Shown here: piece by piece, positions 1-21,912 of the stretch
Layout of the letters: each line of letters starts with the position of its first letter
Position numbering within the stretch: the stretch's first letter is position 1
Program-made: the position numbers and the translations under genes
The notes under the pieces: model-generated
Seen by the model: only the letters and a program-made list of their open reading frames with translations
Told to the model about the DNA's origin: nothing
Databases searched by the model: none
Origin: a virus
Virus record (IMG/VR): IMGVR_UViG_3300035703_000282
Coordinates: 1-33,641 of that record
DNA: 33,641 bases
Strand: one strand, 5' to 3'

Positions 1-1113
1 AGAGCAGCGATAGAGAATACGAAGGAGGCTCCAAGATATGCGTTTATTGGGCCTACCTACTCCCAGACCAAGCGAGTTATCTGGGATTACCTCCTCAAGT
101 TTACCGAGCCCCTTAACGCCACTGCCAATATTGCGGAACTTAGGGTTGATTTCTGGGGCAGACGCATCCAACTTGCGGGGTCTGATAACCCAGACTCTCT
201 TAGAGGACAGTATTTCGACGGGGTTGTATTCGACGAGTTTGGGGATCAGAACCCTAAAATTTGGTCGGAAGTGGTTCGTCCGGCCTTATCAGACAGGATG
301 GGATGGGCGTTATTCCTCGGAACACCCAAAGGAAACAACCACTTCAAGACCCTGAGAGATCATGCAGAGCAGCATAACGATTGGGCACTGCTTGAGTTCC
401 GAGCATCCGAAACTGGTCTTATCCCTCAGACTGAACTCGATGCAGCCAAGTCTGAAATGGGAGACGATAAGTACTTACAGGAGTTTGAGTGTTCCTTTGA
501 CTCAGCCATTGAAGGAAGTTACTACGGGCAACTTCTCAATGAGCTACCGTCTGAGCGATTCCACGACATACCTGTAGACGGACTAGCCAAGACTTACGCA
601 GCCTGGGACTTAGGGATAGGTGACTCTACTGCTATCTGGGTGTGTCAGAGAGTAGGCTTAGAGACACGACTCATTGACTTTGTGGAGAACCACGGCCAGG
701 GACTCGATTGGTATGTGAACTGGCTGAGAACGAATCACTATGAGTTAGCCGAGCAGTTACTTCCTCATGACGTACAAGTAAGGGAGCTAGGCACTGGTCG
801 CTCCAGGATGGAACTCCTACAAGAAGCAGGGTTGAATATCACGATTGTGCCGAGAATGGGTGTTGACGACGGGATACAGGCCGTGAGAAGGCTGATCCCT
901 TATTGTTGGTTTGACTCCAAGACTAAGCGCGGAGTGGACGCACTACGCAACTATAGGAGACAATACGACGATAAGCGTCAAGTCTACTGGGATAAGCCTT
1001 TACATGATTGGGCATCTCATGCGAGCGACGCATTTCGGTATTTGGCAATAGGTATGTCTGAGACAACATCTTGGTCAAAGCCTCTGAAACCTAACGTAAG
1101 CTGGGTGGTGTAA
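1..1113 (+). CDS. terL: Terminase large subunit (5' end missing)
   Basis: DNA-packaging motor: an ATPase that pumps DNA through the portal, fused to a nuclease that cuts the concatemer. The reading frame is open from the first base, so the N-terminus, including the expected Walker A loop, lies outside the window. Visible ATPase signs are a Walker B-like GVVFDEFGDQ (bases 220-249) and the coupling motif LGTPKGNNHF (316-345). The C-terminal half looks like the RNase H-fold nuclease: AAWDLGIGDSTAIW carries an early acidic residue, and HDWASHASDAFRYL supplies a late Asp typical of this domain. Its stop overlaps the portal start by one base (TAATG), so the two are probably translationally coupled. 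Family identity is secure; the subfamily is not resolved. Confidence 0.93.
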   Translation, partial: RAAIENTKEAPRYAFIGPTYSQTKRVIWDYLLKFTEPLNATANIAELRVDFWGRRIQLAGSDNPDSLRGQYFDGVVFDEFGDQNPKIWSEVVRPALSDRMGWALFLGTPKGNNHFKTLRDHAEQHNDWALLEFRASETGLIPQTELDAAKSEMGDDKYLQEFECSFDSAIEGSYYGQLLNELPSERFHDIPVDGLAKTYAAWDLGIGDSTAIWVCQRVGLETRLIDFVENHGQGLDWYVNWLRTNHYELAEQLLPHDVQVRELGTGRSRMELLQEAGLNITIVPRMGVDDGIQAVRRLIPYCWFDSKTKRGVDALRNYRRQYDDKRQVYWDKPLHDWASHASDAFRYLAIGMSETTSWSKPLKPNVSWVV

Positions 1114-3080
1114 TGGACGACGGTAGACTTAAAGCAATACTTCAAGGCGAAATCGACAACGCCATAGGCTTTCTTGAAACAGAGACCGTAGAGCAGCGGA
1201 AAAACGCGCTTACGGCCTACATGCGTGATCCTTACGGAAACGAGGTAGAGGGTCGCAGCCAGATCGTAACCGGAGAGGTTGCAGAAGCAGTAGACGGGAT
1301 GCTGCCGCCTCTCATGCGTTTGTTTACTTCTGCCGACCAGATCGGTGTATTCGAGCCTGTAGGCCCAGGCGACGAGCCTTTAGCACAACAAGCTACGGAG
1401 TACACAAACTGGGTGCTTATGAAGCAAAACCCAGGTATTGCGATCATGCACGACTGGTTTAAGGATGCGATCCTTCAAAAAGTCGGGGTGCTTAAGGCTT
1501 ACTGGGATGACTCCATATCTGTCACAAAGGAGCAGTACGCAAACCTTACCGACGACGAACTAGCTCTTATCATGTCTGATGGCACGATGGAGATCGCAGC
1601 ACAAGAGACGGTTGAGCAAGATATAGACGGTCAAGTCATGCGTGTTCATAACGTCGCGCTTATGCGTAAGACCAAGGCAGGAAGGGTCAAAATCGAGAAT
1701 GTGCCTCCAGAGGAGTTCCTGATCTCTAAGGCAGGAAAGACCGTAAGAGACACGCCTTTCGTCGCGCACAGGAAACTCATCACGAGGTCTGATTTAGTTG
1801 CAATGGGGTTCGATGCCGAGATCGTGATGAACCTGCCGGTTTACAACGACCTCGAGTTCTCTGCTGAGTACATTGCTCGATACAACCGAGACGAACAGCC
1901 TTACATGGAGCCGAGTCTCGATAAGTCCATGCAGACGGTTGAGGTTTTCGAGTGCTACCTAAAGACTGACTATGATGGGGATGGGATTGCAGAACTAAGA
2001 CGGGTTCACTTTTCGGGGAATGAAATCCTAAGCAACGAGGAAACCGACTATGTGCCGTTTTACACCCTCTGCCCTATTCCGATACCTCATCGCTTCTTTG
2101 GGGATTGCCCTGCTGATCGTACAGTTGATCTCCAGCTTATCAAGACTACTCTAACGAGGCAGATGCTTGATAACCTTTACCTTCAAAACAATACTCGTAT
2201 GGGTGCTGTCGAAGGTCAGGTCAACCTCGATGACCTCTTGAGCGTTACCCCTGGTGGCGTGGTCAGGCTGAAGAACCCTGGCGCACTTGTTCCTATTCAA
2301 GTCAATCCTGTTGCCCAGCAGGTATTCCCGTTCATGGAGTACCTGGATTCGATCCAAGCCAAGCGTACGGGCGTTACAGAGGCTTCCCAAGGGTTAGACC
2401 CCAACATCCTACAGAACGTGACTGCTGCGGCCATAGCAGCCCTTACGCAAGCCTCACAAGGCAAGATCGAGTTAGTCGCTAGGATCTTCTCTGAAACAGG
2501 TGTAAAAGATCTATTCAAAGGACTCTTACACCTACTATGCAAGTACCAGGACAAAGCAGTCATCATTCGGATGCGCGGCCAGTATGTTCAGTACGACCCT
2601 CGAGAGTGGTCGAACCAGTACGATGTGTCAGTGAATGTCGGACTTGGTACGGGGAACATCGAGCAAAAGATGGCGATGCTCTCAATGGTTCTTGCAAAAC
2701 AAGAGCAGATCATCCAGACGTACGGCCCGAGCAATCCTTTAGTGTCTGTCTCGCAATATCGTGCGACGCTCGGAAAGTTGATTGAGGCAGCAGGCTTTGC
2801 AGACTCGGCTGAGTTCTTCAAGCAAGTGACACCAGAGGTTGATGCTGCACTTGCACAACCTCAGCAACAAGGCCCAGATCCTGCCGTACAAATGATGATG
2901 GCGCAGGCTCAAGCGGATATTGAGATCAAGCGTCAGAAAGCTATGGCAGACATTCAACTTGCAAGAGAGAAAGCACTAGCCGAGCTAGAACTCAAGCGTA
3001 TGGAGTTTGAAGCAGAAGCGCAGATGAAGGCTATGAAAGTCGGCGCAGGCATTACGTCTAACATTGAGATACCAGGATAG
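1113..3080 (+). CDS. Portal (head-to-tail connector) protein
   Basis: Forms the dodecameric ring at the capsid vertex through which DNA enters and leaves, and to which the tail adaptor binds. The 655-residue length fits portals of P22-like and similar short-tailed phages. The N-terminus (DNAIGFLETETVEQRKNALT) and the following segment EVEGRSQIVTGEVAEAVDGM match the usual start of these portals. The last 80 residues are rich in Gln, Ala, Glu and Lys (MMMAQAQADIEIKRQKAM) and should form a long helix or coiled coil, as expected for a portal barrel or crown. Position directly after terL and before the scaffold and capsid genes supports the call. Assignment rests on pattern and context rather than a single diagnostic motif. 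Confidence 0.88.
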   Translation: MDDGRLKAILQGEIDNAIGFLETETVEQRKNALTAYMRDPYGNEVEGRSQIVTGEVAEAVDGMLPPLMRLFTSADQIGVFEPVGPGDEPLAQQATEYTNWVLMKQNPGIAIMHDWFKDAILQKVGVLKAYWDDSISVTKEQYANLTDDELALIMSDGTMEIAAQETVEQDIDGQVMRVHNVALMRKTKAGRVKIENVPPEEFLISKAGKTVRDTPFVAHRKLITRSDLVAMGFDAEIVMNLPVYNDLEFSAEYIARYNRDEQPYMEPSLDKSMQTVEVFECYLKTDYDGDGIAELRRVHFSGNEILSNEETDYVPFYTLCPIPIPHRFFGDCPADRTVDLQLIKTTLTRQMLDNLYLQNNTRMGAVEGQVNLDDLLSVTPGGVVRLKNPGALVPIQVNPVAQQVFPFMEYLDSIQAKRTGVTEASQGLDPNILQNVTAAAIAALTQASQGKIELVARIFSETGVKDLFKGLLHLLCKYQDKAVIIRMRGQYVQYDPREWSNQYDVSVNVGLGTGNIEQKMAMLSMVLAKQEQIIQTYGPSNPLVSVSQYRATLGKLIEAAGFADSAEFFKQVTPEVDAALAQPQQQGPDPAVQMMMAQAQADIEIKRQKAMADIQLAREKALAELELKRMEFEAEAQMKAMKVGAGITSNIEIPG

Positions 3081-3083
3081 ATC

Positions 3084-4745
3084 ATGGCACTTCCCGTACT
3101 ACCTTCTGGCTGGACTGGCTACACGCCACAACAAAAGATCTCGTGGTTTAACTCAAACGGAACGACGATTGAGGAACTCGTAGGTGCGGGTGTGCCTGAT
3201 TCAGACATTCTCTACATGCTGAACAATGGTTACAACCCACCCGCTCCCGTTGTTCAAGAACCTATCCAACAAGAACCAATTTACACGCAGCCAGAACCTG
3301 TTTATCAAGAACCAGTCTACCAAGAGCCTGTTTATCAGGAACCTGTATACACACAACCTGTTTATCAAGAGCCTGTGTACACACCGCCGGTATACACGCC
3401 TCCTCCTGCGCCAACTTACAACATCTTTGGATTGCAGTGGGATTCTGCTGCGCCTTTGTCTACTAAACAAGGCTATGTTAGCTCTTTGCTAACAGCAGGT
3501 ATCACTCCCGATCAAATCAAGGCAAAGATTGCTGAGTTAGACCCTGCTAACGCTAACCAAGCGGCGTATGACTTATTGGGCATACCCTCTGCGCCTCCTC
3601 CTCCAACTACAACAACGACAACAAACACGACTAACACGACTGGCTTGCTCGGCGGGGATACAAGCGTTCCGACAACGACAGTAACCCCTCCAACGACAAC
3701 CGTAGTCGAGCAACCAAGGAATACATCTCAAGACGCTGTGACGCTGATGGCGGCGCAGTTAGGTCTTGGATTGCCTAATGAGTGGCAGTATTACACCCCG
3801 CAAGATAAGGTCAACTGGTTTAACGCTAACAATGTGACTGAGCAGACGCTCAAAGATTACAAGGTTCCTCAGTCTGATATTGATTACGCAAAGACGCTTG
3901 GGTTGGGAACGACAACCGCGCCACCTCCGTCTTATCAGCTTCCCACTGGTATGACGCTCCCCAGTGGTTGGTCTGCGTTTACAGGCCAACAGAAGGTTGA
4001 TTGGTACAACCAGAATAGAGTCACAGCAGACATGCTGCGAGCGATGGGAGTACCAGAGACTGATGTGCAGGGTGCTATCACTCTTGGCCTGGGGCAGACA
4101 ACCACGCAACCTCCTGCTGGTACGACTCAACCTCCGCGTACGTTTAACCCTGCGGACTACATGCCGCCTACGTTCAACTTGCCTGCGACTAACTTTGTTC
4201 CTTTCACTACAGGCGGCGGCCAGACAAGTCTTGCTGCGCCTACTACAGGGTTCTTTTACAAGACAACACCTACAGAGCAGGTTCCTTTCCAGTTTCAATC
4301 GGGTGCTGCTGGCTATACAAACCTACGTCCCATGACGCTAGAGTTTGGTATCCCGCAGGCTGTGTCTCAAGTTCAGCAGTTTCAACCTGGTTACTTCAAC
4401 CAAGCAGGGATTCTCCAGAATTACGATTGGGCTAAGACCAACACGCAGTTAGCAGAGCAGGCAGCACAAGAAGCTCAACAGCAGGCAGCGCAAGATTCGG
4501 GTATTGCTCAGGGCGGCATGTACATGGGCGGAAAGGTTGAGTCAGATAACCTTTCTTACGAGAAAGGCGGGAAGATCCGGTCTTTACTTGGGCCTAATCC
4601 AGACGGGCCGGACGAGGGTTATGCCAAGCTACAGCGTGGTGAATATGTCGTTCGTAGGAAAGCAGTTAACAAGTACGGTGAGGACTTCTTAGAAGCCCTA
4701 AACGAAGCAAGAATGCCTAAAGAGAAACTAAAGAGCCTGCTATGA
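3084..4745 (+). CDS. Modular Pro/Tyr-rich structural protein
   Basis: A 553-residue protein of unknown function between portal and scaffold. It holds three similar modules of about 45 residues, near residues 6-50, 229-274 and 290-335. Each begins LPSGW or LPNEW, continues with a TPQQK/TPQDK/TGQQK-type motif and a WFN/WYN, and ends with a short helix (VPDSDI, VPQSDI, VPETDV). A weaker fourth copy may lie at 115-160. The modules are separated by low-complexity linkers: EPVYQ pentads, Pro/Thr runs and Gln-rich stretches. The C-terminus (GPDEGYAKLQRGEYVVRRKA, then VNKYGEDFL) resembles the EYVV...AV.K.G ending common in phage tail and head proteins. The start follows the portal stop by three bases with only a weak ribosome site. 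Probably a virion or assembly accessory protein. Confidence 0.7.
   Translation: MALPVLPSGWTGYTPQQKISWFNSNGTTIEELVGAGVPDSDILYMLNNGYNPPAPVVQEPIQQEPIYTQPEPVYQEPVYQEPVYQEPVYTQPVYQEPVYTPPVYTPPPAPTYNIFGLQWDSAAPLSTKQGYVSSLLTAGITPDQIKAKIAELDPANANQAAYDLLGIPSAPPPPTTTTTTNTTNTTGLLGGDTSVPTTTVTPPTTTVVEQPRNTSQDAVTLMAAQLGLGLPNEWQYYTPQDKVNWFNANNVTEQTLKDYKVPQSDIDYAKTLGLGTTTAPPPSYQLPTGMTLPSGWSAFTGQQKVDWYNQNRVTADMLRAMGVPETDVQGAITLGLGQTTTQPPAGTTQPPRTFNPADYMPPTFNLPATNFVPFTTGGGQTSLAAPTTGFFYKTTPTEQVPFQFQSGAAGYTNLRPMTLEFGIPQAVSQVQQFQPGYFNQAGILQNYDWAKTNTQLAEQAAQEAQQQAAQDSGIAQGGMYMGGKVESDNLSYEKGGKIRSLLGPNPDGPDEGYAKLQRGEYVVRRKAVNKYGEDFLEALNEARMPKEKLKSLL
3297..3411 (+). repeat. 15-base tandem repeat encoding EPVYQ-type pentapeptides
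   Basis: Tandem degenerate 15-base units encode repeated EPVYQ, EPVYT and PPVYT pentapeptides in the linker after the first module of the structural protein. The bases vary mostly at third codon positions, so selection appears to keep the peptide rather than the DNA. An extended Pro/Tyr linker is the likely consequence. Confidence 0.75.
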
Positions 4746-4978
4746 CACAACGATGGGAACGAGCAAAAGCATTACTTGGTGACGAGTTTCTGACAGAAAT
4801 CTTCACTGAGTTGGAAAAAGACAACATCGAGCGTATCATCAATAGTAATCCTGACGACATTGACTTACGCGAAGAGTCATATGTGGCAATTCGTGCAGTG
4901 CGTCAGGTTAAGGCACGTCTTGAATCTGTTGCCGCCGAAGGCGAGATAGTGAAGAGACGATTTAAGATTTTTAAGTAG
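4742..4978 (+). CDS. Small conserved head-region protein
   Basis: A 78-residue charged, mostly helical protein (MTQRWERAKALLGDEFL at the N-terminus). Its ATG overlaps the previous stop (ATGA), so it is translationally coupled, and the scaffold gene follows 10 bases later. I see no catalytic motif or membrane segment. Lying between a structural protein and the scaffold, it may be a head-assembly helper, but the function is unknown. Confidence 0.65.
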   Translation: MTQRWERAKALLGDEFLTEIFTELEKDNIERIINSNPDDIDLREESYVAIRAVRQVKARLESVAAEGEIVKRRFKIFK

Positions 4979-4988
4979 AGGTTAGTGT

Positions 4989-5924
4989 ATGGAAAGCAGC
5001 AACCCGCAAGGGACTAGCTTGACAGTGGGACAGGCAGCAGATGCCTTCTTGGGTCTAATGGGTGGCGGCGAACCTCCTCAGGAGCAAGTTCAAGACCAAC
5101 CAGAAGAACAAGAGGTTGCGGCCAGTGAATCCGAATATGAGGAAGCAGCAGAGGAAGTTCAGGAAGAGGAACCACGCTTTACGGTGAAAGCCGCTGGTGA
5201 AGAGCGTGAAGTGACCCTCTCAGAACTTATCGAGGGCTACCAAAAGGGTACGGATTACCATAAAAAGACTAACGCGCTTGCCGAACAGCGCAAGGCTGTA
5301 GAGGCTGAAAAAGCCGCTGTAGAGCAAGCAAAGCAGGCGAGAGACGCATATTCTCAGCGTTTGCAGGCTATGGATCAGTTCCTAAGCCAACAAATGCGTG
5401 GCGAGGATATTGAAAGTTTGAAGGAAACCGACCCGATTGCGTATGCGGTCAAGGTCGCAGAGCAGACTAGGCAAAAAGAGCAGATTCAACAGATTCGTGC
5501 TGAACAGCAACGCATTGCGAGAGAGCAACAGGCAGAGCGTGAGGCGCATCTTGAGAAGCACTTAGCCGAGGAAGCGAAAAGGGTAGCCGAGGCAATCCCT
5601 GAGTATGCACATCCTGAGAAGGGTGAGAAGGTTCGCTCTGAACTTCGTAGCTTTGCAAAGAGTATTGGTTACTCGGACACAGAGCTAGCAAATGCAACCG
5701 ACTCTCGCGCTGTGTTGACGTTGTGGATGGCAAGTCAGTACCAGAAACTGCAAAAGGCCAAGCCTGGTGTAACCAAGAAGGTTGCCGAGGCTCCCAAGAT
5801 GCTAAAGGCTGGTAATGCCACGGGTAAGACCATAGCAACAGAGGCAGCAAAACAGGACTTTGCGCGACTTAAAAAGACTGGTTCTCGACAAGACGCTGCA
5901 AGGGTTTTTGAAAGATTTTTGTAA
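4989..5924 (+). CDS. Capsid scaffolding protein
   Basis: Internal scaffold that directs procapsid assembly and is then lost. The call rests on position immediately before the capsid gene and on composition. Residues 30-60 are strongly acidic (runs of Glu and Gln). Residues about 95-210 are Glu/Lys/Gln/Ala-rich and should form a long coiled coil (KAVEAEKAAVEQAKQARDAY). The C-terminus is basic (FARLKKTGSRQDAARVFERF), the usual feature by which scaffolds bind the coat protein. The 311-residue length is typical. A ribosome site (AGAGG) precedes the ATG. Confidence 0.85.
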   Translation: MESSNPQGTSLTVGQAADAFLGLMGGGEPPQEQVQDQPEEQEVAASESEYEEAAEEVQEEEPRFTVKAAGEEREVTLSELIEGYQKGTDYHKKTNALAEQRKAVEAEKAAVEQAKQARDAYSQRLQAMDQFLSQQMRGEDIESLKETDPIAYAVKVAEQTRQKEQIQQIRAEQQRIAREQQAEREAHLEKHLAEEAKRVAEAIPEYAHPEKGEKVRSELRSFAKSIGYSDTELANATDSRAVLTLWMASQYQKLQKAKPGVTKKVAEAPKMLKAGNATGKTIATEAAKQDFARLKKTGSRQDAARVFERFL

Positions 5925-5936
5925 TTAGGAGTAATC

Positions 5937-6893
5937 ATGTCTGTTCCTTCAGGTACATTCCAGACCTTCACCGCTATCGGTCAGCGTGAAGATCTAACCG
6001 ATGTTATTTACAACATCAGCCCGACCGAGACACCTATCCTTTCGTCGCTTGCTCGCACCAAAGCAACGGCTGTCTACCACGAGTGGCAGACGGATACCCT
6101 TGCCGCAGCAACCACCAACAACGCACAGGTTGAAGGTGACGACGCAACGGCAGCAACCATCAGCCCAACAACCCGTCTCGGCAACTACACGCAGATCGTT
6201 TCCAAGACGATCCAGGTGTCAGGAACCATGATGGCCGTTGATCTTGCAGGCCGTCGCGCAGAGAAGGCTTATCAACTCTCGAAGGCTTCGCAAGAACTCA
6301 AGCGAGATCAGGAAACGATCATCTCTGCCAACCAGGGGCGTAGCGCAGGTAACTCGTCCACGGCTCGCAAGATGGGTTCGCTTTTGTCTTGGCTCAAGAC
6401 CAACTCGAACTACAACACCAGTGACGGTGCTAACCCCACCACCATCGGTGTTTCGACCCGTTCGGACGGTACAACCCGTACCTTTACCGAGGCAATCCTC
6501 AAGGATGGCGTTCAGCAGGTTTACACCTCTGGCGGTAGCCCCAAGATCCTCGTGGTTGGCCCTGCACTCAAGCAGACCGTTTCGGCCTTTGCGGGTATCG
6601 CAGCACAGCGCTACATGGCTCCTTCTGACGCACCGACGACCATCATCGGCGCGGCGGATGTGTACCTAAGCGACTTCGGTTCGATCTCTGTAGTCCCAGA
6701 TCGTTTCGTTCGTAGCCGTGATGCGTTTATCCTCGATCCTGAGTATGCAGCGATTGGTTATCTGCGCCCATTCCAGACCAACGAGCTTGCCAAGACTGGC
6801 GACTCGGAGAAAACTCAGATCCTTGCTGAGTTCACGATGGAAATGCGTAACGAGGCTGCTCACGGTATCCTGGCTGACCTCAAGACAGCGTAA
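5937..6893 (+). CDS. Major capsid protein (SU10/DUF5309-like)
   Basis: Coat protein of the icosahedral head. The N-terminus (TFTAIGQREDLTDVIYNISP followed by TETPILSSLAR) is the typical start of the SU10-like/DUF5309 capsid family, which has the HK97 fold. The 318-residue length fits. Other matching stretches are the HEWQTDTLA segment near residue 45, the central KDGVQQVYTSGG and the C-terminal FTMEMRNEAAHGILADL. A strong ribosome site (AGGAG, five bases before ATG) and an intrinsic terminator directly after the gene suit high-level expression. Codon use here is markedly C-rich at third positions compared with neighbours, consistent with a highly expressed gene. Confidence 0.93.
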   Translation: MSVPSGTFQTFTAIGQREDLTDVIYNISPTETPILSSLARTKATAVYHEWQTDTLAAATTNNAQVEGDDATAATISPTTRLGNYTQIVSKTIQVSGTMMAVDLAGRRAEKAYQLSKASQELKRDQETIISANQGRSAGNSSTARKMGSLLSWLKTNSNYNTSDGANPTTIGVSTRSDGTTRTFTEAILKDGVQQVYTSGGSPKILVVGPALKQTVSAFAGIAAQRYMAPSDAPTTIIGAADVYLSDFGSISVVPDRFVRSRDAFILDPEYAAIGYLRPFQTNELAKTGDSEKTQILAEFTMEMRNEAAHGILADLKTA

Positions 6894-6941: not shown

Positions 6942-7226
6942 ATGCTCAAAACTAAATTTCATGCAACCGACGACCAGTATGTCTTTGAAAGAACTCAAGA
7001 CATAACGGCTATTGTTGAGCAGAACAAAGCACTCTATAACGCGACAGATGAGCGCGAGCGTTGGGGTGAGTGGACTCGATACGCTCAACTGCCTTATGCG
7101 GTGATTGACGACCTAAACAAACAAGGAATCATGCGAGGCTTTGCTATCGCAGACGAGAAGAAGTTCAGGGCGTGGATGAACGACCCAGAGAACAGACACT
7201 TTAGAACTAGACCAGGGAAAGTATGA
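6942..7226 (+). CDS. Conserved phage protein after the capsid gene
   Basis: A 94-residue soluble protein with no recognised domain. It is charged and aromatic, with a C-terminal segment FRAWMNDPENRHFRTRPGKV that looks like a conserved structural-region protein. The ATG comes immediately after the terminator's T-run, so there is no clear ribosome site, unless the terminator stem is opened by read-through. Its stop overlaps the glycosyltransferase start (ATGA). Function unknown. Confidence 0.6.
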   Translation: MLKTKFHATDDQYVFERTQDITAIVEQNKALYNATDERERWGEWTRYAQLPYAVIDDLNKQGIMRGFAIADEKKFRAWMNDPENRHFRTRPGKV

Positions 7227-7888
7227 AGATAGCCTTTTGTGTCCCATGTCGGGACACGATGATGACGGGGACTGCCTTCGACATGGCTCGACTGGCAGCG
7301 TATGACGGGGCCAACAGATGTGCGACAACAGGAGGATCGTTCCTCTTGTATACCGCACCAGGCACTCTCATCTTCAGCCAGAGAGAGTCTTTGGCTAAGG
7401 AAGCCTTAGCCGACGGCGCGGAGTACATCCTTTGGGTGGACTCGGATATGAGGTTCCCTAAGAACACGTTAGAACGACTGTTAGCCCACGGCCAAAAGAT
7501 CGTCGGCGTTAATGCAGTCACAAGGCGCAAACCTGTTTTACCGACAGCGATTAACTTTCACCAAGATAAAGAGATCTTTGAGAAGATCGAGAGTCGAGGC
7601 AAGAAGGGTATCGAGGAGGTTACGGCTGTAGGTTTCGGGGTTGTGTTGACCCATAAGTCTGTGTTTGATGCTATGCCGCAGCCTTGGTTTGATGTAGTAT
7701 GGGGGGCGGGTGGTCTAATTGGCGAAGATGTGCATTTTTGCGTGAAAGCCTTAGATCACGGGATAAAAACTTTCGTGGATCACGAATTGAGCCTCGAAAT
7801 AGGACACATCGGGACGCACGAATACCGGTGGAGCGATGTCGAATATGGCCCTAAGCACCTACAGCGATCTGCAAACAACGATAGCTAA
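7223..7888 (+). CDS. Family 2-like (GT-A) glycosyltransferase
   Basis: Probably transfers a sugar from a nucleotide-sugar donor. The N-terminal strand MKIAFCVPCRD is followed by a helix and then WVDSDMRFP, in which D73-S-D75 is a DxD-type metal and donor site. Later features fit a GT-A fold: VGFGVVLTHKSVF, then GGLIGEDVHFC with a candidate acidic base, then a late His (LEIGHIG). At 221 residues it is a minimal, soluble enzyme without a membrane anchor. It is coupled by ATGA to the gene before it, and its 3' end overlaps the adaptor gene by about 44 bases. Position inside the morphogenesis block suggests virion glycosylation, but the acceptor is unknown. Confidence 0.82.
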   Translation: MKIAFCVPCRDTMMTGTAFDMARLAAYDGANRCATTGGSFLLYTAPGTLIFSQRESLAKEALADGAEYILWVDSDMRFPKNTLERLLAHGQKIVGVNAVTRRKPVLPTAINFHQDKEIFEKIESRGKKGIEEVTAVGFGVVLTHKSVFDAMPQPWFDVVWGAGGLIGEDVHFCVKALDHGIKTFVDHELSLEIGHIGTHEYRWSDVEYGPKHLQRSANNDS

Positions 7889-11070: not shown

Positions 11071-11964
11071 ATGGCTGGTGGCTCAACAAACACGGTGACG
11101 AGGACGGAATTAGACCCGTCTCAAGCCCCTTATGTCCAATATGGTCTATCCGAGGCGCAACGTCTCTACGCTACTGGAGGCCCGCAAGCCTACACAGGCC
11201 AAACCTATGTTGGCCCATCCCAACAGACGCAGGCCGCGCTTTCTGCCATGCAGACAAGGGCTATGCAAGGCAATCCACTTGTGCCTTTAGCGCAACAACA
11301 GCTAGCAAGTCAGATCGGTGGCAGTCAGGCGGAGACACTTCAGAGTCAATTTAACCCTGTCTTGCAAAACACGTTAAGCGGTAGCTTCCTTGGGCCTAAC
11401 CCTTACCTGACACAAGCGTTACAACCTGGGTTTAACCAAGCTACACAGTCTTATCAAGACGCTATCAACCAGATGCGGTCTAAGGCTTCTGCTTCTGGCC
11501 GGTATGGGACGAACGAAGCCCTTATGAGCCAGGAAGCAAGGGCTCAGGGTGCGTTAGCAAATGCGTTAACCAGTCAGGCAGGACAGCTTGCTTATCAGAA
11601 CTACGGAGACGAGCGAGCAAGACAGATGTCTGCGCTTGGTCTAGGTGCGAATCTCTACGAACAGGAGCGAGCAAGACAACAGGCTGCGATTGGTGCTGCT
11701 CCTGGCATGGCCGCACAGGACTACACGGATATTGCACAACTCGCACAAGTTGGTCAGACAGCAGAGCAGTACCAACAAGCGGCACTTGCAGACGCGATCC
11801 AGAAGTTCAACTACCAACAACAACAACCTTACGCGAACCTACAGTCGTTTCTGTCGAGTGCTTATGGATCGCCTGCTGGTATGCAGACTATCCAACCCAC
11901 CTACTCTAATCCGCTAGCTGGCGTTCTTGGCGCGGCATTGGCAGGAAAGGCGTTGTTAGCATGA
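11071..11964 (+). CDS. Putative DNA-ejection (internal virion) protein
   Basis: A 297-residue Gln/Ala-rich protein. The start GGSTNTVTRTELDPSQAPYV and the following GLSEAQRLY resemble phage proteins that begin with a short Tyr-containing segment and continue as long amphipathic helices. The repeated A/Q pattern and SKASASGRYGTNEALMSQEA suggest a helical bundle. The C-terminus ends with a hydrophobic Ala/Leu/Gly segment (LAGVLGAALAGKALLA) that could touch membranes. It is followed with overlap by three more proteins of the same character. The role as an ejection protein is inferred from order and composition. Confidence 0.6.
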   Translation: MAGGSTNTVTRTELDPSQAPYVQYGLSEAQRLYATGGPQAYTGQTYVGPSQQTQAALSAMQTRAMQGNPLVPLAQQQLASQIGGSQAETLQSQFNPVLQNTLSGSFLGPNPYLTQALQPGFNQATQSYQDAINQMRSKASASGRYGTNEALMSQEARAQGALANALTSQAGQLAYQNYGDERARQMSALGLGANLYEQERARQQAAIGAAPGMAAQDYTDIAQLAQVGQTAEQYQQAALADAIQKFNYQQQQPYANLQSFLSSAYGSPAGMQTIQPTYSNPLAGVLGAALAGKALLA

Positions 11965-12464
11965 GCGGTGCGGAGCCAATTATTGCCGCTGAGGTTATTG
12001 GTTCTGCTGCGGCGGCAGAGGGCGCTGCTGCGGCTGCGGCTGCTGCAACTGCTGCTGAGGCGGCGGCTGCTGCTAGTGCGGCACAAACAGCGGCAACAGC
12101 AACGGGAGCGGCAAATCCGTTCTTATCTGCTGCCTATGGCTCCTTGCCTGGTATGACTGCCGGATCTCAACAGGCCGCGATGTTAGCTGCACAGACGGGA
12201 GAGTTTGGCCTTCCTGGTCTGATGTCTACAGGCGGTTCTGCAACGTACTCAGGTGCGGGCGGTCCACTTGCTAAGGCTTTGTTTTCTTCTGGTACGCCTA
12301 CGGCATCGAGAATGGGCCTGCAAGGGGTAAGTATGTTGCAACAGTCTCAGCCAAGACCTATGGGGCAGGCTCCAGGCATAAAGAGAGGTCAGGCTTTGCA
12401 GGCTCCAGATATTGCATCGTATTTACCTCAACCTATCCAACGCAAACGCTTATCGTTGCTATGA
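11961..12464 (+). CDS. Ala-rich putative ejection-associated protein
   Basis: A 167-residue protein whose residues 8-50 are almost entirely Ala with Glu, Thr and Ser (AAAAEGAAAAAAAATAAEAA). The segment could be a long helix or a membrane-interacting one. The rest is Gly/Ser/Gln-rich with no known domain, ending in a basic tail (QPIQRKRLSLL). Start overlaps the previous stop (ATGA). Placed between two larger ejection-type proteins, it is probably part of the same complex. Function unproven. Confidence 0.55.
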   Translation: MSGAEPIIAAEVIGSAAAAEGAAAAAAAATAAEAAAAASAAQTAATATGAANPFLSAAYGSLPGMTAGSQQAAMLAAQTGEFGLPGLMSTGGSATYSGAGGPLAKALFSSGTPTASRMGLQGVSMLQQSQPRPMGQAPGIKRGQALQAPDIASYLPQPIQRKRLSLL

Positions 12465-12468
12465 GGGC

Positions 12469-13884
12469 ATGATGGACGAGTATTTACAAAGATTGTTTGG
12501 TTCAGGACCGTCCTACATGGGGCAACTCATGGGAGCGGATGAGGCTGAGAGGTTACGCAGAGAGGCGCAAAACCAAGGCTTGTTGGGTGCTGGTATCGGG
12601 CTTCTCATGGCTTCTGGACCGTCCGCACAAAGACAGAACATAGGCCAGATCATCGGGCAGGGTCTTATGACAGGCCAGCAGGCCTATCGCGGTGCTGTGC
12701 AGCAAGCGGTGCAGGATAAGATGACTGCGCTACAGCTTGGCGAGATGGCGAAGAAACAAAGAGCTGAACAAGCATTACCTGGCCTTATTCAGGGCGCTAT
12801 GGTCGCTCCTCAAAGAGAGTTGACGGATCTTGAGCGGATGGAAATGAGAACTCCTTCTGTTGCTACGGGTCCAGCTCGATTTGATCCTCAACAGTTTTTG
12901 CAAAGAGCAACTGCTGCCGGTGTGTCACCAACGGTTGCTATTCCGCTAGGCCAACAGATTCAATCATTTACTAAACCGCAAACAAAGGTTTATAAGCCTG
13001 GCGATGTAATCATGGACGAAGTAACTGGGCAGGTGCTGCATACCGTCCCAGAAAAGTCTGAGATGGGCTATATGTCAACAGACCAGGGTATTTTTGCTTA
13101 TGACAAAAATGCAAAAACACCATCTTTAGTAAAGGTCATGGATGCTGGCGGGAAGTTCACTGGCGAAGCAGCGAATTATGCTTTAAGCGAATACGGAACC
13201 GCTGATGCCTCAAAACTAAGTCCAACGCAAAGGCAAGACGTTTGGAAAAGCGGTACTTTAGAATCTAAAAAAGCCAGTGCTTCATCAACAAAAGTTGTTT
13301 TGCCTGGAGAAAAATCAACAAGCAAAGCCTTGGAAAAGTTTGGCGAGCAATATCCAGAACGACTTGCCCAGGCCGTTACCGCCGACCAAACAAACCAGCG
13401 TCTTGCGTCAATTATTGAAAACAAAAACCAAAAGATGTACACGGGACTGCTTGCTCCTGGTCAAGTTGCTGCGGCCCAGTTCTTGCAATCGTTTGGCGTG
13501 CAAGTTGATGCAGAAAAGCTAGCCAACACAAGAACATCGCAAGCGACTGCCAACCAGCTTGTACTTGACTTTATGGGCGCTATGGGCGGTGCTAAAGGGT
13601 TCTCCAAAGAAGAGTCGGCAATTCTTTATGACTCATTCCCCAAGATCATTGATGACCCGAATAGCCGAGCAAGAATTGCTGAGATGCTTATCAAGCGAAA
13701 CAATCAGGTCATTGATGACTTCAATAGCATTAGATCGTCGCTGGAAGAATATGAGGGCGGCAGAGCGCTTCCTGGAAGAAAAATATCTCCGTTTGATTTG
13801 TCGGCAATTAAACCGGAGCCGCAACAAGAAAAGAAAAAGCCGAGCACCTTGCCTCCAGGCGTAAGAGTTATTAGGGAACGCTAA
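12469..13884 (+). CDS. Putative ejection / internal virion protein
   Basis: About 471 residues. The N-terminus has MDEYLQRLFGSGPSYMGQLM, then a hydrophobic glycine-rich stretch (GLLGAGIGLLMASG), then helical Gln-rich sequence. An in-frame ATG at 12412 would overlap the previous gene by 53 bases. The tandem ATGs at 12469 and 12472 lie just after a TGAGGG ribosome site and fit better. From about base 13040 to 13800 the DNA is visibly richer in A and T, with more AAA/CAA-type codons than either flank, which hints at recombination. The stop overlaps the next start (TAATG). No enzymatic motif seen. Confidence 0.58.
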   Translation: MMDEYLQRLFGSGPSYMGQLMGADEAERLRREAQNQGLLGAGIGLLMASGPSAQRQNIGQIIGQGLMTGQQAYRGAVQQAVQDKMTALQLGEMAKKQRAEQALPGLIQGAMVAPQRELTDLERMEMRTPSVATGPARFDPQQFLQRATAAGVSPTVAIPLGQQIQSFTKPQTKVYKPGDVIMDEVTGQVLHTVPEKSEMGYMSTDQGIFAYDKNAKTPSLVKVMDAGGKFTGEAANYALSEYGTADASKLSPTQRQDVWKSGTLESKKASASSTKVVLPGEKSTSKALEKFGEQYPERLAQAVTADQTNQRLASIIENKNQKMYTGLLAPGQVAAAQFLQSFGVQVDAEKLANTRTSQATANQLVLDFMGAMGGAKGFSKEESAILYDSFPKIIDDPNSRARIAEMLIKRNNQVIDDFNSIRSSLEEYEGGRALPGRKISPFDLSAIKPEPQQEKKKPSTLPPGVRVIRER

Positions 13885-15788
13885 TGAAAACCTACAGCGT
13901 CGAGATTCCAGGCCAAGGTCGGTTTCGCGTAGAGTCCGAGCAAGAACTTACGGACGAGCAAGCGTATCAGGCGGCACTAATGCAGGCTCAAAAGGAGCCT
14001 CCTACGCAAAGACTTCGTACTGCCGCCCAAGGTTTTACGATGGGAGCATCTGACGAGGCTGAGGCCGCGATTGTTTCTCGATGGACGGGAAGGCCGTACG
14101 ACGAGGTTCTTAGCGAGATCCGTACAAAGATCAAGGCTTACCAGCAAGCACAGCCCGTTGAATCAACTGGTGCTGAATTGATGGGTGCGGCGGGTATGGG
14201 TTTATTAACCGCTCCGCTTACTGGCGGCGCATCTATTCCAATGACGTTAGGACGCGCTGCTGCGCTCAGTGGAGCGCAAGGTGGTATAACTGGATTTGCG
14301 TCTGCTGAGGGTGGTATGCAAGAGCGTGGCGCTGGTGCGGTTACCGGAGCGGTTACAGGCGCTGCGCTAGGTCCGATTGCTCAGAAGGGCATGGAGGCTC
14401 TTGGGTTTACTGCCGACAAGGTTGTTGATTGGGCGAGGCGCAACATAGGCGGTCGAGGAAGTAAGGCTGTCGAAACGGAAATCCAAAGGCTCGCAAGCAC
14501 TAGCGGCATGACAACAGATGAGATCGTTGATCGTATCGCTAAGGGCGAAATCATGGCAGAAAACGAGACGCTGAGAACAGCGGTTCGTGCGCTGTACTCA
14601 CAGGGTGGCTCTGCTTCCAATATTCTTAGAGAAGCATTAACGGTCCGACCTGAAGCGTTTAGAAAGTCTGCTCAAAGCATGATGCAGGCAGGATTAACGC
14701 CTGGCGTTAATAAGAGCGTGCTTCGCTCCATGAAGATGACTGATGACGCTGCAAGAGCAGCAGAGCGCCAGGCATACAAACAAGCCTTTGAACAAGGCGG
14801 GATCATATCTCCTGAGTTAACACTAGCCTTTGGCGATGCAATCAAAAAAGTTCCCAATGTAGTTGAAAACATCAACCGCAATTACCGAGCAGAAACAGGT
14901 AAGAAAAACTTTTTTGAAGTTGTTGATGGCAATGTGAAGTTTGATAAAGGCGCAACACTTGAAGATTTTGAGATTGCAAGAAGGGCTTTGCGCGACGAGG
15001 CAGATCAAGCCTATCGAGCAGGGCAGGGGTCTTATGGAGAGATCCTTAAAAACCTTGAGTTAAACATCAAAACGGCACTGGATGCAGCGTCTCAACCATT
15101 AGCCAAGGCCAGGGCAGGTGCTGCTGCATTGCGTCAAGCAAGAGACGCTTTTGGTGAGGGCAGGAAAGCTCTTACGAAAAGTGCAGACCAGGTTGATTTG
15201 GAAGTTCAGGGACTAAACGCACAGCAATTGCAAGCATATCGCTCTGGCGTTATGGACTCATTTCGCAACAAGTTCACAACTGGGCAGCGCAAGTCTTTAA
15301 TGACAACGCTTGCAGACCCTGAGAGCAAAGAAGCAAAGATCTTAAGGTCTGTGTACCCTCAAGATTCGCTTTCCGACTTGATGAAGAAAATTGATCTTGC
15401 GTCTCAATCTCAAAAAACAGCCACTTCGGTTCTTGGTGGATCTCAAACTGCTCCTAGCCTGTTACAGGCTCAAAAAGTTGGTTCTAACGTTTCTGCTCAG
15501 GAGATGGTTTCGGCTATGAGCGGAGATCCCTTCGCTTTATTGAACGTAACCCGTAAAATCCTGAGTAGCAAAACTCAAAATCTTTCCGAGCCTGATCGTG
15601 AGCGTGTTGCAAAGATTTTGGTTGAAACAGACCCAACTCTTGTTAGAAGGGCGTTACAGGACGATAGCGTGATGGCAGATTTACAGCGTAGGGTCGGTCA
15701 AATTATGGGCGGCACTGCGGTAGGCGCAAGAAGCGCAGGGGCGTATGGCGCTGGGGCTTATTTAACCCCATCGTTGCTAGCGGAGTAA
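13884..15788 (+). CDS. Large putative DNA-ejection protein
   Basis: A 634-residue protein. The opening [18 protein letters not shown] followed by a helix resembles the short N-terminal domain common in phage ejection proteins. Residues about 95-160 are Gly/Ala/Leu-rich and hydrophobic ([38 protein letters not shown]), a plausible membrane-inserting segment. Residues 200-600 are charged helices ([20 protein letters not shown]). This matches the general layout of ejection proteins that build a channel across the cell envelope after ejection. It is the last and largest of the set, directly before the tail fibre. Confidence 0.62.
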
Positions 15789-15790
15789 TC

Positions 15791-18562
15791 ATGGCAAAGA
15801 CAAAGATCTCTGAGTTTTCCTCAACTCCAGGCAATAACACCGACATAGACGGTATAGACATTGCCGAGGGTTGTGCGCCTAGTAATATCAACAATGCTAT
15901 ACGGGAGTTGATGAGTCAGCTTAAGAACCAGCAGGCAGGGCTCGATGGCGATACGTTTACAACAAACGATGTACTTACGGTTTCTGGCGTTACGGCTAAC
16001 GCTGCTCGTATTCGACTAGGTGAAGATGCGGACAACGGTTCTAATTACACCGAATTACGTTCTGCTGCTTCTTTAGCTTCTAACGTAACCTTCGTTCTTC
16101 CCTCTGCTGATGGTGCTGCTAACACGGTCTTGAGCACAGACGGGTCAGGTAACCTGTCTTTTGGTGCTGTCACGGGCACTGGTGATGTTGTGAGAGCAAC
16201 CTCTCCGACGCTAGTCACGCCTAACCTTGGCACACCAACATCCCTGACTCTTACGAATGCAACAGGACTCCCTATTGTTGCAGGCACGACAGGAAACCTA
16301 ACCGTAGCACGAGGCGGTACGGGTGCAGCAACAGCAGCAGACGCAAGGACTAACTTAGGGGTTACTGAGACAGGCCAGGATACAACCTACGCCTTTAGGT
16401 CTAACAACCTTTCTGATCTTTCTTCTGCCTCGTCTGCTCGCACAAACCTCGGTTTAGGAACAATTGCAACACAAGCAGCATCGAGTGTTTCTATTACAGG
16501 TGGTTCGATTACAGGGATTACCGATCTAGCGGTTGCTGACGGTGGTACTGGCGCATCGAATGCGACAGACGCAAGAACCAACTTAGGTGTTACGGCCACA
16601 GGTCAAGACACAACTTACGCTTACCGCGCAAATAACCTCTCTGACTTATCTTCTGCGTCAACAGCCAGAACGAACCTTGGTCTTGGAGACATGGCTACGC
16701 AAGCCTCTAATTCGGTCTCCATCTCTGGAGGCTCGATAACGGGCATTACAGACCTTGCTGTAGCAGATGGTGGTACAGGTGCATCTAACATCACTGACGC
16801 TCGTACGAACCTCGGAGTGCCTTCCACAACGGGTTCTGGTGCTACAGGAACCTGGAATATCGACATCCTTGGTTCTGCTAACAGTGCAACTACAGCGACC
16901 TCAGCGACAACCGCGACAAACCTATCCGGTGGCGCTGCTAATCGTCTAGCTGTACAGACTGCTGCTAACACGACAGGCTTTGTAACCGCGCCTTCTAGCT
17001 CAGGGACATACCTTTCTTGGAATGGGACTGCTTTAACCTGGGCGACTCCAGCGGGAACGGGTGACGTTGTAGGCCCATCCTCTGCAACTGCAAACCAGAT
17101 CGCATTGTTCGATGGAACGACAGGTAAGTTAGTTAAAGCAGCCTCCACAACGGGCGTATTGAAGGCTGTAAGCGGTGTTATCTATGCGGCAACTTCAGGC
17201 ACAGACTATGCCCCTGCAACGTCAGGAACGGGCATTCTTAAGGGTGATGGGGCAGGAGCGTTTGCTACCGCATCATCTGGTATTGACTATGCTCCTGCAA
17301 CAAGCGGAACAGCGATCCTCAAGGGTAATAACGCAGGTGGCTTTGCCAATGCGGTGTCGGGTACAGATTATGTTCCGATCAACGGAACTGGCGCGACAGG
17401 AACATGGTCGATCTCGATCTCAGGTGTAGCCAATAGCGCGACCAGCGCAACAAGCGCGACAACCGCAACCAATCTCGCAAGCGGCGGAACAAACCAGATC
17501 CCTTACCAGACAGGATCGGGAACGACGAGTTTCATTGCAGGCCCAACAGTAAGTTCGACTTACCTCTCGTGGAATGGATCAGGCTTTGTTTGGGCTGCTG
17601 CAAGCGGCGGTGGTGGGACGACAACCAATGCGGCAACCTTCAATAATTCAGGTTCTGGGGACTCTTCTGGGATCACTTTTGACGGGTCTGCTGCCAGGAC
17701 AATTAGCTACAACACGTTAGGGGCAGCTCCTGCTACAACGGGTGTGAGTCATCAACTGTTAGCAAGTAACGGCACTGGTGGCTTTATTAACCTGACAACG
17801 GGAACGGGTGTTGTCACTGCTCTAGGTAACCAAACAAACACCTCTAGTGGGATGGTGACGCAATCAAGCACTTTGCTCACTAACGCAATCCTTGTTGGCG
17901 GTGGTTCTGGAGTAGGTATTAGTTCGGCCACGACGGGAACTGGTGTCGTTACTGCGCTAGGTGTCAACGTAGGATCGTCGGGTGCTTTTGTTGTTAACGG
18001 TGGTGCTCTAGGGACACCTTCTTCTGGGACGCTAACTAACGCAACGGGGCTTCCGCTATCAACGGGTGTAACTGGAAACCTTCCTGTCTCTAACCTCAAC
18101 TCAGGAACCGGTGCATCTTCATCGACTTTCTGGAGGGGCGATGGAACGTGGGCTACGCCTGCGGGTGGTGGTGGAACAACCACTAACGCGCTAACCCTTA
18201 ACAACTCTGGGTCTGGAGCCGCATCGGGAACCACGTTTGATGGGTCAACAGCAGTCACGTTGTCCTACAACACGATTGGCGCTGCTGCTGCTCCTACGGG
18301 TACAAGTGCTGAGTTATTGGCAAATAATGGCACAGGTGGATTCAGTAACGTAACGGTAGGGTCTGGGTTAAGTCTGTCAGCCGGAACCTTGTCTGCGACA
18401 GGTGGTGGAGCAGGCGGGCCTATCTTAGAATCGCAGATACTTATTTCTTCTAACGTGACATTAACGAGCAATACAAACGGTTTGTCGGTCAGTCCGGTGA
18501 CTGTTGCGGCGGGGTATGCTGTAACGGTTCCAGATGGTCAATCTTGGATGGTCTTAGGATAA
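15791..18562 (+). CDS. Tail fibre protein, long repeat-rich
   Basis: Receptor-binding fibre of 923 residues. Residues 4-45 ([20 protein letters not shown], then [17 protein letters not shown]) are the conserved N-terminal attachment segment of many podovirus fibres. The shaft is repetitive and rich in Gly, Thr, Ser, Asn and Ala. It has three VARGGTG/VADGGTG...ARTNLGV copies spaced about 76 residues apart near residues 172, 248 and 324, further [15 protein letters not shown] motifs, and NNSGSG...FDG copies. The C-terminal portion ([19 protein letters not shown]) is short and may be the tip or a trimerisation piece. No intramolecular chaperone domain is visible. The ribosome site GGAG precedes the ATG by six bases. 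Confidence 0.85.
16306..16830 (+). repeat. Three imperfect ~228-base repeats in the fibre shaft
   Basis: Copies start near 16306, 16532 and 16760. Each encodes a V-A-(R/D)-GGTGA segment followed by DARTNLGV. The first two continue with TTYA(F/Y)R(S/A)[10 protein letters not shown] and ARTNLGLG before the next unit. The copies differ at many third codon positions, so the duplication is not recent. Confidence 0.8.
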
Positions 18563-21068: not shown

Positions 21069-21323
21069 ATGACAACAAAGGTATTTAGGTTTCTGGGGAT
21101 TGACACAGCAATGCACCTACTACGTCCAGGTGCGAAGTGGGAGATCAGTAACAACGTCTTTACAAGATGGGATGATCCTAGACCATGCCCAAGCATAGAA
21201 GAAGTGTATTGGGTTATGGACAAGATCAAAGAGTTTGAAGAAATGATTCCTACGATTTGGTTGCCTGAGCAACTAGAGGAAATGGGTATCAGGCAAAAGG
21301 AAATTGAAGATGCAATTGCATAA
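21069..21323 (+). CDS. Small tail-associated protein (XkdW-like)
   Basis: An 84-residue protein. The LLRPGAKWEISNN segment followed by an acidic helix (SIEEVYWVMDKIKEFEEM) resembles short phage proteins that occur just after fibre genes and are sometimes named XkdW-like. AGAGG precedes the ATG. It may be a chaperone or accessory for the adhesins upstream. The family resemblance is moderate and the function is unknown. Confidence 0.55.
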   Translation: MTTKVFRFLGIDTAMHLLRPGAKWEISNNVFTRWDDPRPCPSIEEVYWVMDKIKEFEEMIPTIWLPEQLEEMGIRQKEIEDAIA

Positions 21324-21912
21324 TCTGTTTCCTACGCCAGTAGGCTTTGCAGAGCTTGGCAGACCCTTAAGCGATGAGGAGCTGTTCTTCATTCGTGGGC
21401 TTGAAACAAGACCCAACATGGGTAACACCACAAGTACAGATAACTTCGTACTGCGTAACCCTGCGCTAACAAGCCTACGTTCGTTCGTAGAAGATAGTGT
21501 TTCGGATTACTTCAAAAGCACAGTCAATCCAAAGCACAACGTAAGCCTGAGAGTGACCCAAAGTTGGTGTAACTACTCGGAACCAGGGCAATACCATCAC
21601 AAACACGCACATCCTAATAGCTACATATCAGGTGTGTTTTATGTGCAGACAAACGCTGATGACAGGATTTACTTCTACCGTGATGGATGGCAGCAGATCA
21701 AGTTTCCTCCTGAGACATGGAACCCGTACAACTCTGAGTCTTGGTGGTTTGAAGCCACAGCAGGAAAGCTGATTCTGTTTCCGTCAAGCCTGACGCATAT
21801 GGTTCCTGAAGTCAAAGGCGATGACACTAGGATTTCACTATCGTTTAACACCTTCCCCGTCGGTGTCGTTGGGGAAGAAATGGATTTAACTGGATTAAAG
21901 CTGGAGGCGTAG
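21310..21912 (+). CDS. 2-oxoglutarate/Fe(II)-dependent oxygenase
   Basis: Predicted hydroxylase using 2-oxoglutarate, oxygen and ferrous iron. The 200-residue protein has the layout of the phage 2OG-Fe(II) oxygenase family. The iron-binding segment is HKHAHPNSYISGVFYVQ, with H99/H101 as first ligands, and the distal ligand is H163 in SSLTHMVPEV. R174 (DDTRISLSFN) would bind the 2-oxoglutarate carboxylate. I take the ATG at 21310, with AGGA eight bases upstream, rather than a TTG at 21304. The gene overlaps the preceding small gene by 14 bases. The substrate is unknown; fibre or capsid protein side chains are possible. Confidence 0.87.
   Translation: MQLHNLFPTPVGFAELGRPLSDEELFFIRGLETRPNMGNTTSTDNFVLRNPALTSLRSFVEDSVSDYFKSTVNPKHNVSLRVTQSWCNYSEPGQYHHKHAHPNSYISGVFYVQTNADDRIYFYRDGWQQIKFPPETWNPYNSESWWFEATAGKLILFPSSLTHMVPEVKGDDTRISLSFNTFPVGVVGEEMDLTGLKLEA

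What the first reader, a model, noticed from the sequence alone, without database searches (positions are those of the whole stretch)
3084..4745. Repeated ~45-residue W-(F/Y)-N modules in a portal-adjacent protein
Three clear copies and a possible fourth of a small helical module are joined by Pro/Tyr and Thr-rich linkers, followed by a tail-protein-like C-terminus. A beads-on-a-string protein between portal and scaffold is unusual, and the module does not match a domain I know.
Basis: seen in the sequence. Interest (0 to 1): 0.5.

Follow-up and report, generated by a model that had tools for sequence, protein, structure and literature searches.

The report
Swappable bead modules beside phage portal
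A freshwater-type phage carries, next to its DNA-portal gene, a protein made of small interchangeable helical beads on flexible strings; the same beads are fused to DNA-ejection proteins in other phages, so it is probably a variable accessory part of the machinery that pushes phage DNA into bacteria.

Summary
Confirmed. ORF 3084-4745 (553 aa) has three copies of a ~49-residue module ("A"). AlphaFold gives A as a compact three-helix micro-domain (pLDDT 95.6). No Pfam family or solved structure matches significantly; only an unnamed 48-position PHROG (phrog_37693) matches part of it.

In SU10-like relatives, all 52 distinct readable portal-to-scaffold intervals (portal about 86% identical or more) have as longest ORF a protein with a GEY/FV[VI] segment. 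Its N-terminal half is exchanged among seven unit types while portals stay 92-99% identical in 46 of them. phiEco32, tf, pCB2047-C and Venkman lack the gene.

In other phages the modules are fused to the N-terminus of an ejection-type protein: 15 of 76 distinct A-ORFs, 7 of them with independent sequence links to DNA-ejection proteins. In 3 of 76 the module protein lies directly upstream of a separate one.

Best reading: a virion-internal, ejection-associated accessory protein with a constant C-terminal anchor and exchangeable N-terminal beads. Packaging, ejection and the modules' target are inferred. Tape-measure labels rest on a short C-terminal stretch. New variant of a known kind.

The parts
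3084..4745 (+). modular portal-adjacent protein (W), 553 aa
   Evidence: 67 IMG/VR loci with relatives; dN/dS 0.07-0.11 in 9 pairs
3090..3236 (+). A module 1 (residues 3-51), three helices
3237..3416 (+). Pro/Tyr/Gln linker (QEPVYQEPVYTPP repeats), low model confidence
3417..3590 (+). B module (residues 112-169): two short strands and three helices in the full-length model; separate family from A
3591..3758 (+). Thr-rich linker and a helix before A module 2
3759..3908 (+). A module 2 (residues 226-275)
3948..4094 (+). A module 3 (residues 289-337)
4095..4550 (+). conserved middle segment (TNFVPF..GGGQTSL..PTTGFFYKTTPT..) and Q/A-rich helix, low model confidence
4551..4742 (+). conserved C-terminal segment with GEYVV motif, the constant end through module swaps; proposed anchor
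1113..3080 (+). portal (SU10_portal PF23899, 703.7 bits)
4742..4978 (+). 78-aa conserved ORF of unknown function; phiEco32, tf and pCB2047-C have a short ORF in the same place
4989..5924 (+). scaffold (phrog_3927)
5937..6893 (+). major capsid (SU10_MCP PF17236)
11071..11964 (+). X: DNA-ejection protein (phrog_4287, 5.9e-13); its homologue in L096 carries an A module
12412..13884 (+). Y: large protein after X (a 167-aa ORF lies between); role by position only
13884..15788 (+). Z: next large protein (phrog_5880, unknown function); role by position only

Best explanation
The protein is an accessory internal virion protein that works with the DNA-ejection apparatus of a short-tailed, SU10-like phage. 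The constant C-terminal half, ending in the GEYVV segment, holds it in the head at the portal or the ejection complex. The N-terminal half is an exchangeable string of micro-domains on disordered Pro/Thr-rich linkers. On infection it would leave with the ejection proteins, its flexible beads engaging a host or cell-envelope partner along the DNA path; module turnover between phages tunes that partner. Shown: repeats, a confident predicted module fold, conservation under purifying selection, module swapping beside near-constant portals, and fusion or adjacency of the same modules to ejection-type proteins elsewhere. Inferred: packaging, ejection, anchoring and target binding.
For: Same modules on ejection-type proteins: 15 of 76 distinct A-module ORFs also carry an X-type body, and 3 of 76 are GEYVV-type proteins with a separate X directly downstream (9 bases apart in L077). 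Of the 15, one (L096) is a direct homologue of this window's X (phmmer 2.7e-20); six (L108, L099, L067, L050, L098, L097) are found by phmmer with the X of Synechococcus phage MinM2 (4.3e-20 to 2.7e-5), itself a phrog_4287 match (2.1e-19); the other eight rest on a profile built partly from such fusions. Window X matches phrog_4287 (5.9e-13), the family of phiEco32 gp23 and gp24 (1.8e-117, 1.2e-108). By gene order (my inference) these correspond to SU10 gp21 and gp22; SU10 gp20-24 are in virions and gone after genome release (PMC9509320, passages). Profile comparison of fusion bodies with the window-X family: probability 95%, score 66.9; two reversed-profile controls 17.5 and 18.0, 20 column shuffles at most 16.3. 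GEF/YV segment joined to X: L095 and L097 hold modules, an SHGEFV segment and X in one ORF; in MinM2 the matching stretch is two adjacent genes (one tblastn piece, 9e-13). Units A, B and I occur in both the GEYVV and the X class. Anchor logic: across 46 relatives with portal at least 92%, the last 62 residues keep a median identity of 79% (minimum 66), the first 52 only 51% (minimum 30). dN/dS 0.07-0.11 in 9 pairs.
Against: No proteomics or structure for any member. P0001 itself does not match phrog_4287. In the window the gene is ~6 kb from X. Of ten module proteins scanned, six fusions (L099, L093, L095, L060, L097, L050) gave no phrog_4287 match at E 0.001, only L096 did; L085 none at 0.1. 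The profile that classed 14 of the 15 fusions was built from eight of them. Single-sequence searches with window X find only L096 among module proteins, and those with MinM2 X do not find window X; the iterated window-X HMM misses the other fusions. phiEco32 gp24 alone against the window-X profile is not significant (probability 3%). GEYVV against SHGEFV is motif-level only (probability 14%, E 0.002). Two complete A-module ORFs (L094, L115) carry neither X nor GEYVV. X proteins are Q/A-rich, so composition could inflate weak matches.
Confidence: 0.55

Rival explanations
1. A surface-exposed neck or collar appendage: the C-terminus docks on portal or adaptor outside the head and the beads bind host surface, like a variable adhesin.
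For: Module swapping under near-constant portals is what one expects of host-facing parts; Pro/Thr-rich linkers suit an extended appendage; gene lies beside portal.
Against: The modules' other homes are mostly ejection-type proteins followed by further large genes. The window has separate tail-fibre-like genes.
Confidence: 0.18
2. An assembly factor (portal/scaffold co-chaperone or head-length factor) acting inside the procapsid and not needed after maturation.
For: Position between portal and scaffold in all 52 readable close intervals.
Against: Wide module swapping with near-constant portal is unexpected for an assembly part; in L062-L064 a GEYVV-type module protein lies beside an ejection-type gene instead; phiEco32, tf and pCB2047-C have no such gene there.
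Confidence: 0.15
3. A tail length tape-measure protein, as PHROG labels on the C-terminus suggest.
For: phrog_3547, phrog_10030 and phrog_23013 match the C-terminus, 4.6e-9 to 0.004.
Against: Matches cover 35-124 residues against profiles of 1379-2105 positions; the genome has an SU10-type portal and adaptor; the open frame varies from 259 to 870 residues between phages whose portals are 96-98% identical to the window's.
Confidence: 0.03
4. Neutral, fast-drifting low-complexity protein with no specific role.
For: Disordered linkers; large length variation.
Against: dN/dS 0.07-0.11 in 9 pairs; present in 52 of 52 readable close intervals.
Confidence: 0.04

Closest known systems
phrog_4287 DNA ejection proteins (phiEco32 gp23 and gp24; by gene order SU10 gp21 and gp22)
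   Same: The A module is fused to a member's N-terminus in L096 and to relatives of MinM2's member elsewhere; in L062-L064 the module protein is directly upstream of an X-type gene.
   Different: P0001 lacks the X body and lies beside the portal; the window has its own X at 11071-11964.
phrog_37693 (48 positions, unknown function)
   Same: Matches the first part of the A module: 9 of 20 members, best 3.8e-4; P0001 5.9e-6; L063 3.4e-11.
   Different: 20-23 positions of an unnamed family; says nothing of function.
Tail tape-measure PHROGs 3547, 10030, 23013
   Same: C-terminal stretch with the GEYVV segment.
   Different: No match over the other ~430 residues or more; SU10-type portal and adaptor genes.
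SAM domain of p73 (9gnb, 1cok)
   Same: Weak phmmer alignment over A module 2 (E 0.5-0.65).
   Different: Not significant; SAM has five helices in ~65 residues (recalled), A has three helices in 49.

Membership tests
phrog_4287 DNA ejection protein | profile match of the protein itself | tested here: not met
   No phrog_4287 match for P0001 at E up to 1; window X matches at 5.9e-13
phrog_4287 DNA ejection protein | packaged in the virion and lost on genome release | not testable with these tools
   Stated for SU10 gp20-24 in PMC9509320 (passages); no data for this lineage
Ejection-associated proteins in general | gene fusion or adjacency to ejection proteins | tested here: met
   Met for the A modules: 15 of 76 distinct A-ORFs fused to an X-type body (7 with independent links), 3 of 76 directly upstream. 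In the window itself the gene is ~6 kb from X
Tail tape measure | match along the profile length | tested here: not met
   Only 35-124 C-terminal residues match
Tail tape measure | long-tailed virion | tested here: inconclusive
   SU10-type portal and adaptor argue for a short tail; no virion image
Scaffold protein | profile match (phrog_3927/9013) | tested here: not met
   No match for P0001; the scaffold is the separate ORF 4989-5924
WW domain | Pfam cut-off and beta fold | tested here: not met
   1 of 20 members at E 0.0097; the predicted model is all-helical
SAM domain | significant sequence or fold match | tested here: inconclusive
   phmmer E 0.5-0.65; not among the 8 Foldseek PDB matches

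The most novel reading that the evidence does not exclude
The locus is a cassette system for virion-delivered cargo: a constant C-terminal docking segment beside the portal, onto which phages swap strings of previously unnamed micro-domains from a pool that also arms ejection proteins, so that each phage injects a different set of host-facing beads with its DNA.
Probability: 0.25. Interest if true: 0.75.

Novelty: new variant of a known kind. Interest (0 to 1): 0.5.

Why it matters
Ejection proteins of short-tailed phages are hard to classify; a study of phage PhiGT1 (PMC10386132, passages seen) calls internal virion genes difficult to place on a tree because of divergence and mosaicism. Here one gene shows such mosaicism in the open: an exchangeable N-terminal half, a constant C-terminus, and units shared with ejection-type proteins, in environmental phages with almost no annotated relatives. 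If the protein is injected, module content would be a readable variable of host interaction, testable with single modules.

Tried and rejected
B as a fourth A copy: rejected. WW domain: rejected. Hits of the A profile to WW prototypes and D-lactate dehydrogenase in PDB sequences: E 0.055-0.47, not pursued. Extensin-like Pfam hit (4.6e-4; 20.5 bits against a cut-off of 105): composition of the linker. Fold searches: A model against PDB, best E 2.0, and against BFVD, best 2.8; VIA-align best Z 2.7 with 37 residues at 2.6 A; full model best Z 3.3, 61 residues at 3.7 A, over the B region and best BFVD E 0.55. None is evidence of a known or of a new fold. B was not folded alone. The full-length model is poor (pLDDT 50.6, pTM 0.24). 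Phage records: P0001 finds one record, by the C-terminal stretch only; a module query finds none. Two scans of GTDB genome contigs found no relative; plasmids none. SU10_portal search of the L096 record found nothing and its control rang nowhere: the record is an 8.7-kb fragment beginning with what looks like the end of a scaffold gene, so it is uninformative. Positive selection: not seen for the protein as a whole in 9 pairs. Literature: nine searches (35 and 92 empty) showed no paper on this protein or module in the listings seen; most subscription papers are not held. Dropped rows: one search kept distinct intervals, from all 265 loci then held, with a usable portal end and a small-ORF or scaffold start (54), and looked at the longest ORF of each; one search used the 46 of 52 with a single portal segment at 92% or more; one search merged identical ORFs (76). 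Of one search's 15 'neither' ORFs, by their coordinates 12 run off a contig end, L047 lies in a contig with an inversion after the ORF, and L094 and L115 are complete. The gaps printed are between open frames, not start codons.

Full report
What is there. The window is a virus record of 33,641 bases with SU10-type portal, capsid and adaptor proteins. Between portal (1113-3080) and a 78-aa ORF (4742-4978) followed by scaffold lies ORF 3084-4745, 553 aa. It has three A modules (residues 3-51, 226-275, 289-337), each about 49 residues; W, a Leu and a Gly are invariant in 40 modules and LP, K, N and V nearly so. The three copies are similar far beyond chance (Smith-Waterman 108-119 against a shuffled maximum of 50, 0 of 1000). 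The fourth unit is a different family, B. Linkers are Pro/Tyr-rich and Thr-rich and low-confidence in the model.

The module. AlphaFold with 40 module sequences gives three short helices (13-22, 27-32, 37-44 of the 49-residue stretch) at pLDDT 95.6 and pTM 0.75. In the full-length model, poor overall, B appears as two strands and three helices. Pfam, PDB sequences and PDB folds give no significant match; PHROGs gives only the unnamed phrog_37693 over part of A. The tools cannot show that the fold is new.

Conservation and swapping. A scan of IMG/VR with P0001 gave 67 loci; a scan with the module profile confirmed 85 of 163 pattern matches, 79 loci kept. With the portal as query, 381 of 386 stretches were confirmed and 80 kept. 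Among the 54 distinct portal-to-scaffold intervals that could be read in all loci then held, 52 have a portal about 86% or more identical to the window's; in all 52 the longest ORF contains a GEY/FV[VI] segment; 43 of the 52 contain A and/or B in strings ABAA 16, ABBBAA 13, A 9, BBAA 2, AAA 2, ABBAA 1, and 9 contain neither. Those nine carry other units, which I named C, D, E, G and I from these sequences. Across 46 relatives with portal at least 92%, the C-terminal 62 residues keep a median identity of 79% (minimum 66) and the N-terminal 52 only 51% (minimum 30). Between relatives with the same modules selection is purifying: dN/dS 0.07-0.11 for this protein in 9 pairs, 0.03-0.06 for portal. 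So change comes mainly by gain, loss and exchange of units.

Where else the modules occur. phiEco32, tf, pCB2047-C and Venkman go from portal to a short ORF to scaffold without this gene; MW202711 and PP496355 also have only a short ORF there. MW202462 has a 540-aa protein without A, B or GEYVV in the slot. Among 76 distinct A-module ORFs in the loci then held, 46 are GEYVV type, 15 carry an X-type (ejection) body and 15 carry neither; by their coordinates 12 of these last run off a contig end, one is in an inverted contig, and two (L094, L115) are complete. In three GEYVV cases (L062-L064) a separate X lies directly downstream (9 bases after the stop in L077, the same contig as L062). X-type fusions are followed by two further large proteins in L093, L095, L097 and L099, e.g. 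590 and over 1,690 aa in L099; phiEco32 gp24 is likewise followed by proteins of 551 and 1,473 aa. That is order and size only; I did not test homology of these followers.

Identity of X. The window's own X (11071-11964) matches phrog_4287 'DNA ejection protein' at 5.9e-13, while the 9 other window proteins in the same call do not match that family at E 0.01. phiEco32 gp23 and gp24 are members (1.8e-117, 1.2e-108). In SU10, gp20-24 are in the virion and missing from the genome-release intermediate (PMC9509320, passages), and a 33.3-kDa 'DNA injection protein' gp22 was detected earlier (PMC4281155, passages). Matching phiEco32 gp23/gp24 to SU10 gp21/gp22 is by gene order, my inference. L096 carries an A module on a direct homologue of window X (phmmer 2.7e-20) and itself matches phrog_4287 (1.3e-7).

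The other fusions are more distant. A profile of eight of them aligns to the window-X family with probability 95% and score 66.9; two reversed-profile controls score 17.5 and 18.0 and 20 column shuffles at most 16.3. A bridge that does not use this profile is the X of MinM2: it matches phrog_4287 at 2.1e-19 and finds six of the fusions by plain phmmer (L108 4.3e-20, L099 2.1e-19, L067 3.7e-19, L050 1.2e-12, L098 6.3e-7, L097 2.7e-5). L077's X (phrog_4287 5.3e-6) finds three of these. Against this: six of the fusions give no phrog_4287 match at 0.001, phiEco32 gp24 alone does not match the window-X profile, and neither the iterated window-X HMM nor MinM2's X joins window X to the distant fusions.

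Link between the GEYVV protein and X. L095 and L097 are single ORFs with modules, an SHGEFV segment and X. In MinM2 the corresponding stretch is two adjacent genes: WEV89209.1, ending in a DGEYVIPADVV segment and without a visible A module, and WEV89210.1, the X. This is a fusion/fission pair. The similarity between the window's GEYVV segment and SHGEFV is only motif-like, so this link is weaker than the module link. Units A, B and I occur in both classes; H only in X-type proteins and L115; C, D, E and G only in GEYVV-type proteins or cut ones.

Mechanism. The simplest account is an ejection-associated internal protein with a constant C-terminal anchor and an exchangeable N-terminal string. 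Shown: repeats, fold prediction, conservation, swapping, shared units and gene fusions. Inferred: presence in the head, anchoring at portal or ejection complex, exit with DNA, and binding of a host partner. The main rivals are a surface appendage and an assembly factor; virion proteomics before and after DNA release separates all three.

Noticed in passing
window 21304-21912 (+): 2OG-Fe(II) oxygenase (PF13759, 2.1e-22). Some members of this superfamily hydroxylate proline (recalled); the modular protein has extensin-like PVYQEP repeats, so a link could be tested.
   Followed up: no
window 4742-4978 (+): 78-aa ORF between the modular protein and scaffold, 73-100% identical in the relatives; a short ORF holds the same place in phiEco32 and tf. 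Function unknown.
   Followed up: no
IMGVR_UViG_3300047553_000096 (L139, L178): One 60-kb contig holds two SU10-like portal regions (98% and 92% identical to the window's) roughly 30 kb apart: probably two joined genomes or an assembly chimera.
   Followed up: no
L096, L115 and L050 module proteins: Another recurrent unit (type H: QK..YYN.L...GYT..EIR.A...DW..L) in several ejection-type proteins; phrog_649 (unknown function) matches it in L096 (4.4e-4).
   Followed up: partly
window 15791-18562 (+): Tail-fibre-like protein with repeated ARTNLG stretches.
   Followed up: no
window 7223-7888 (+): Glycosyltransferase-like protein between capsid and adaptor genes (phrog_1574 6.7e-17, unknown function; phrog_12406 glycosyltransferase 1.9e-5).
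   Followed up: no
L069 11026-12648: MW202462 carries a 540-aa protein with a Pro-rich stretch but no A, B or GEYVV in the same portal-scaffold slot: the slot itself may be a cargo site.
   Followed up: partly
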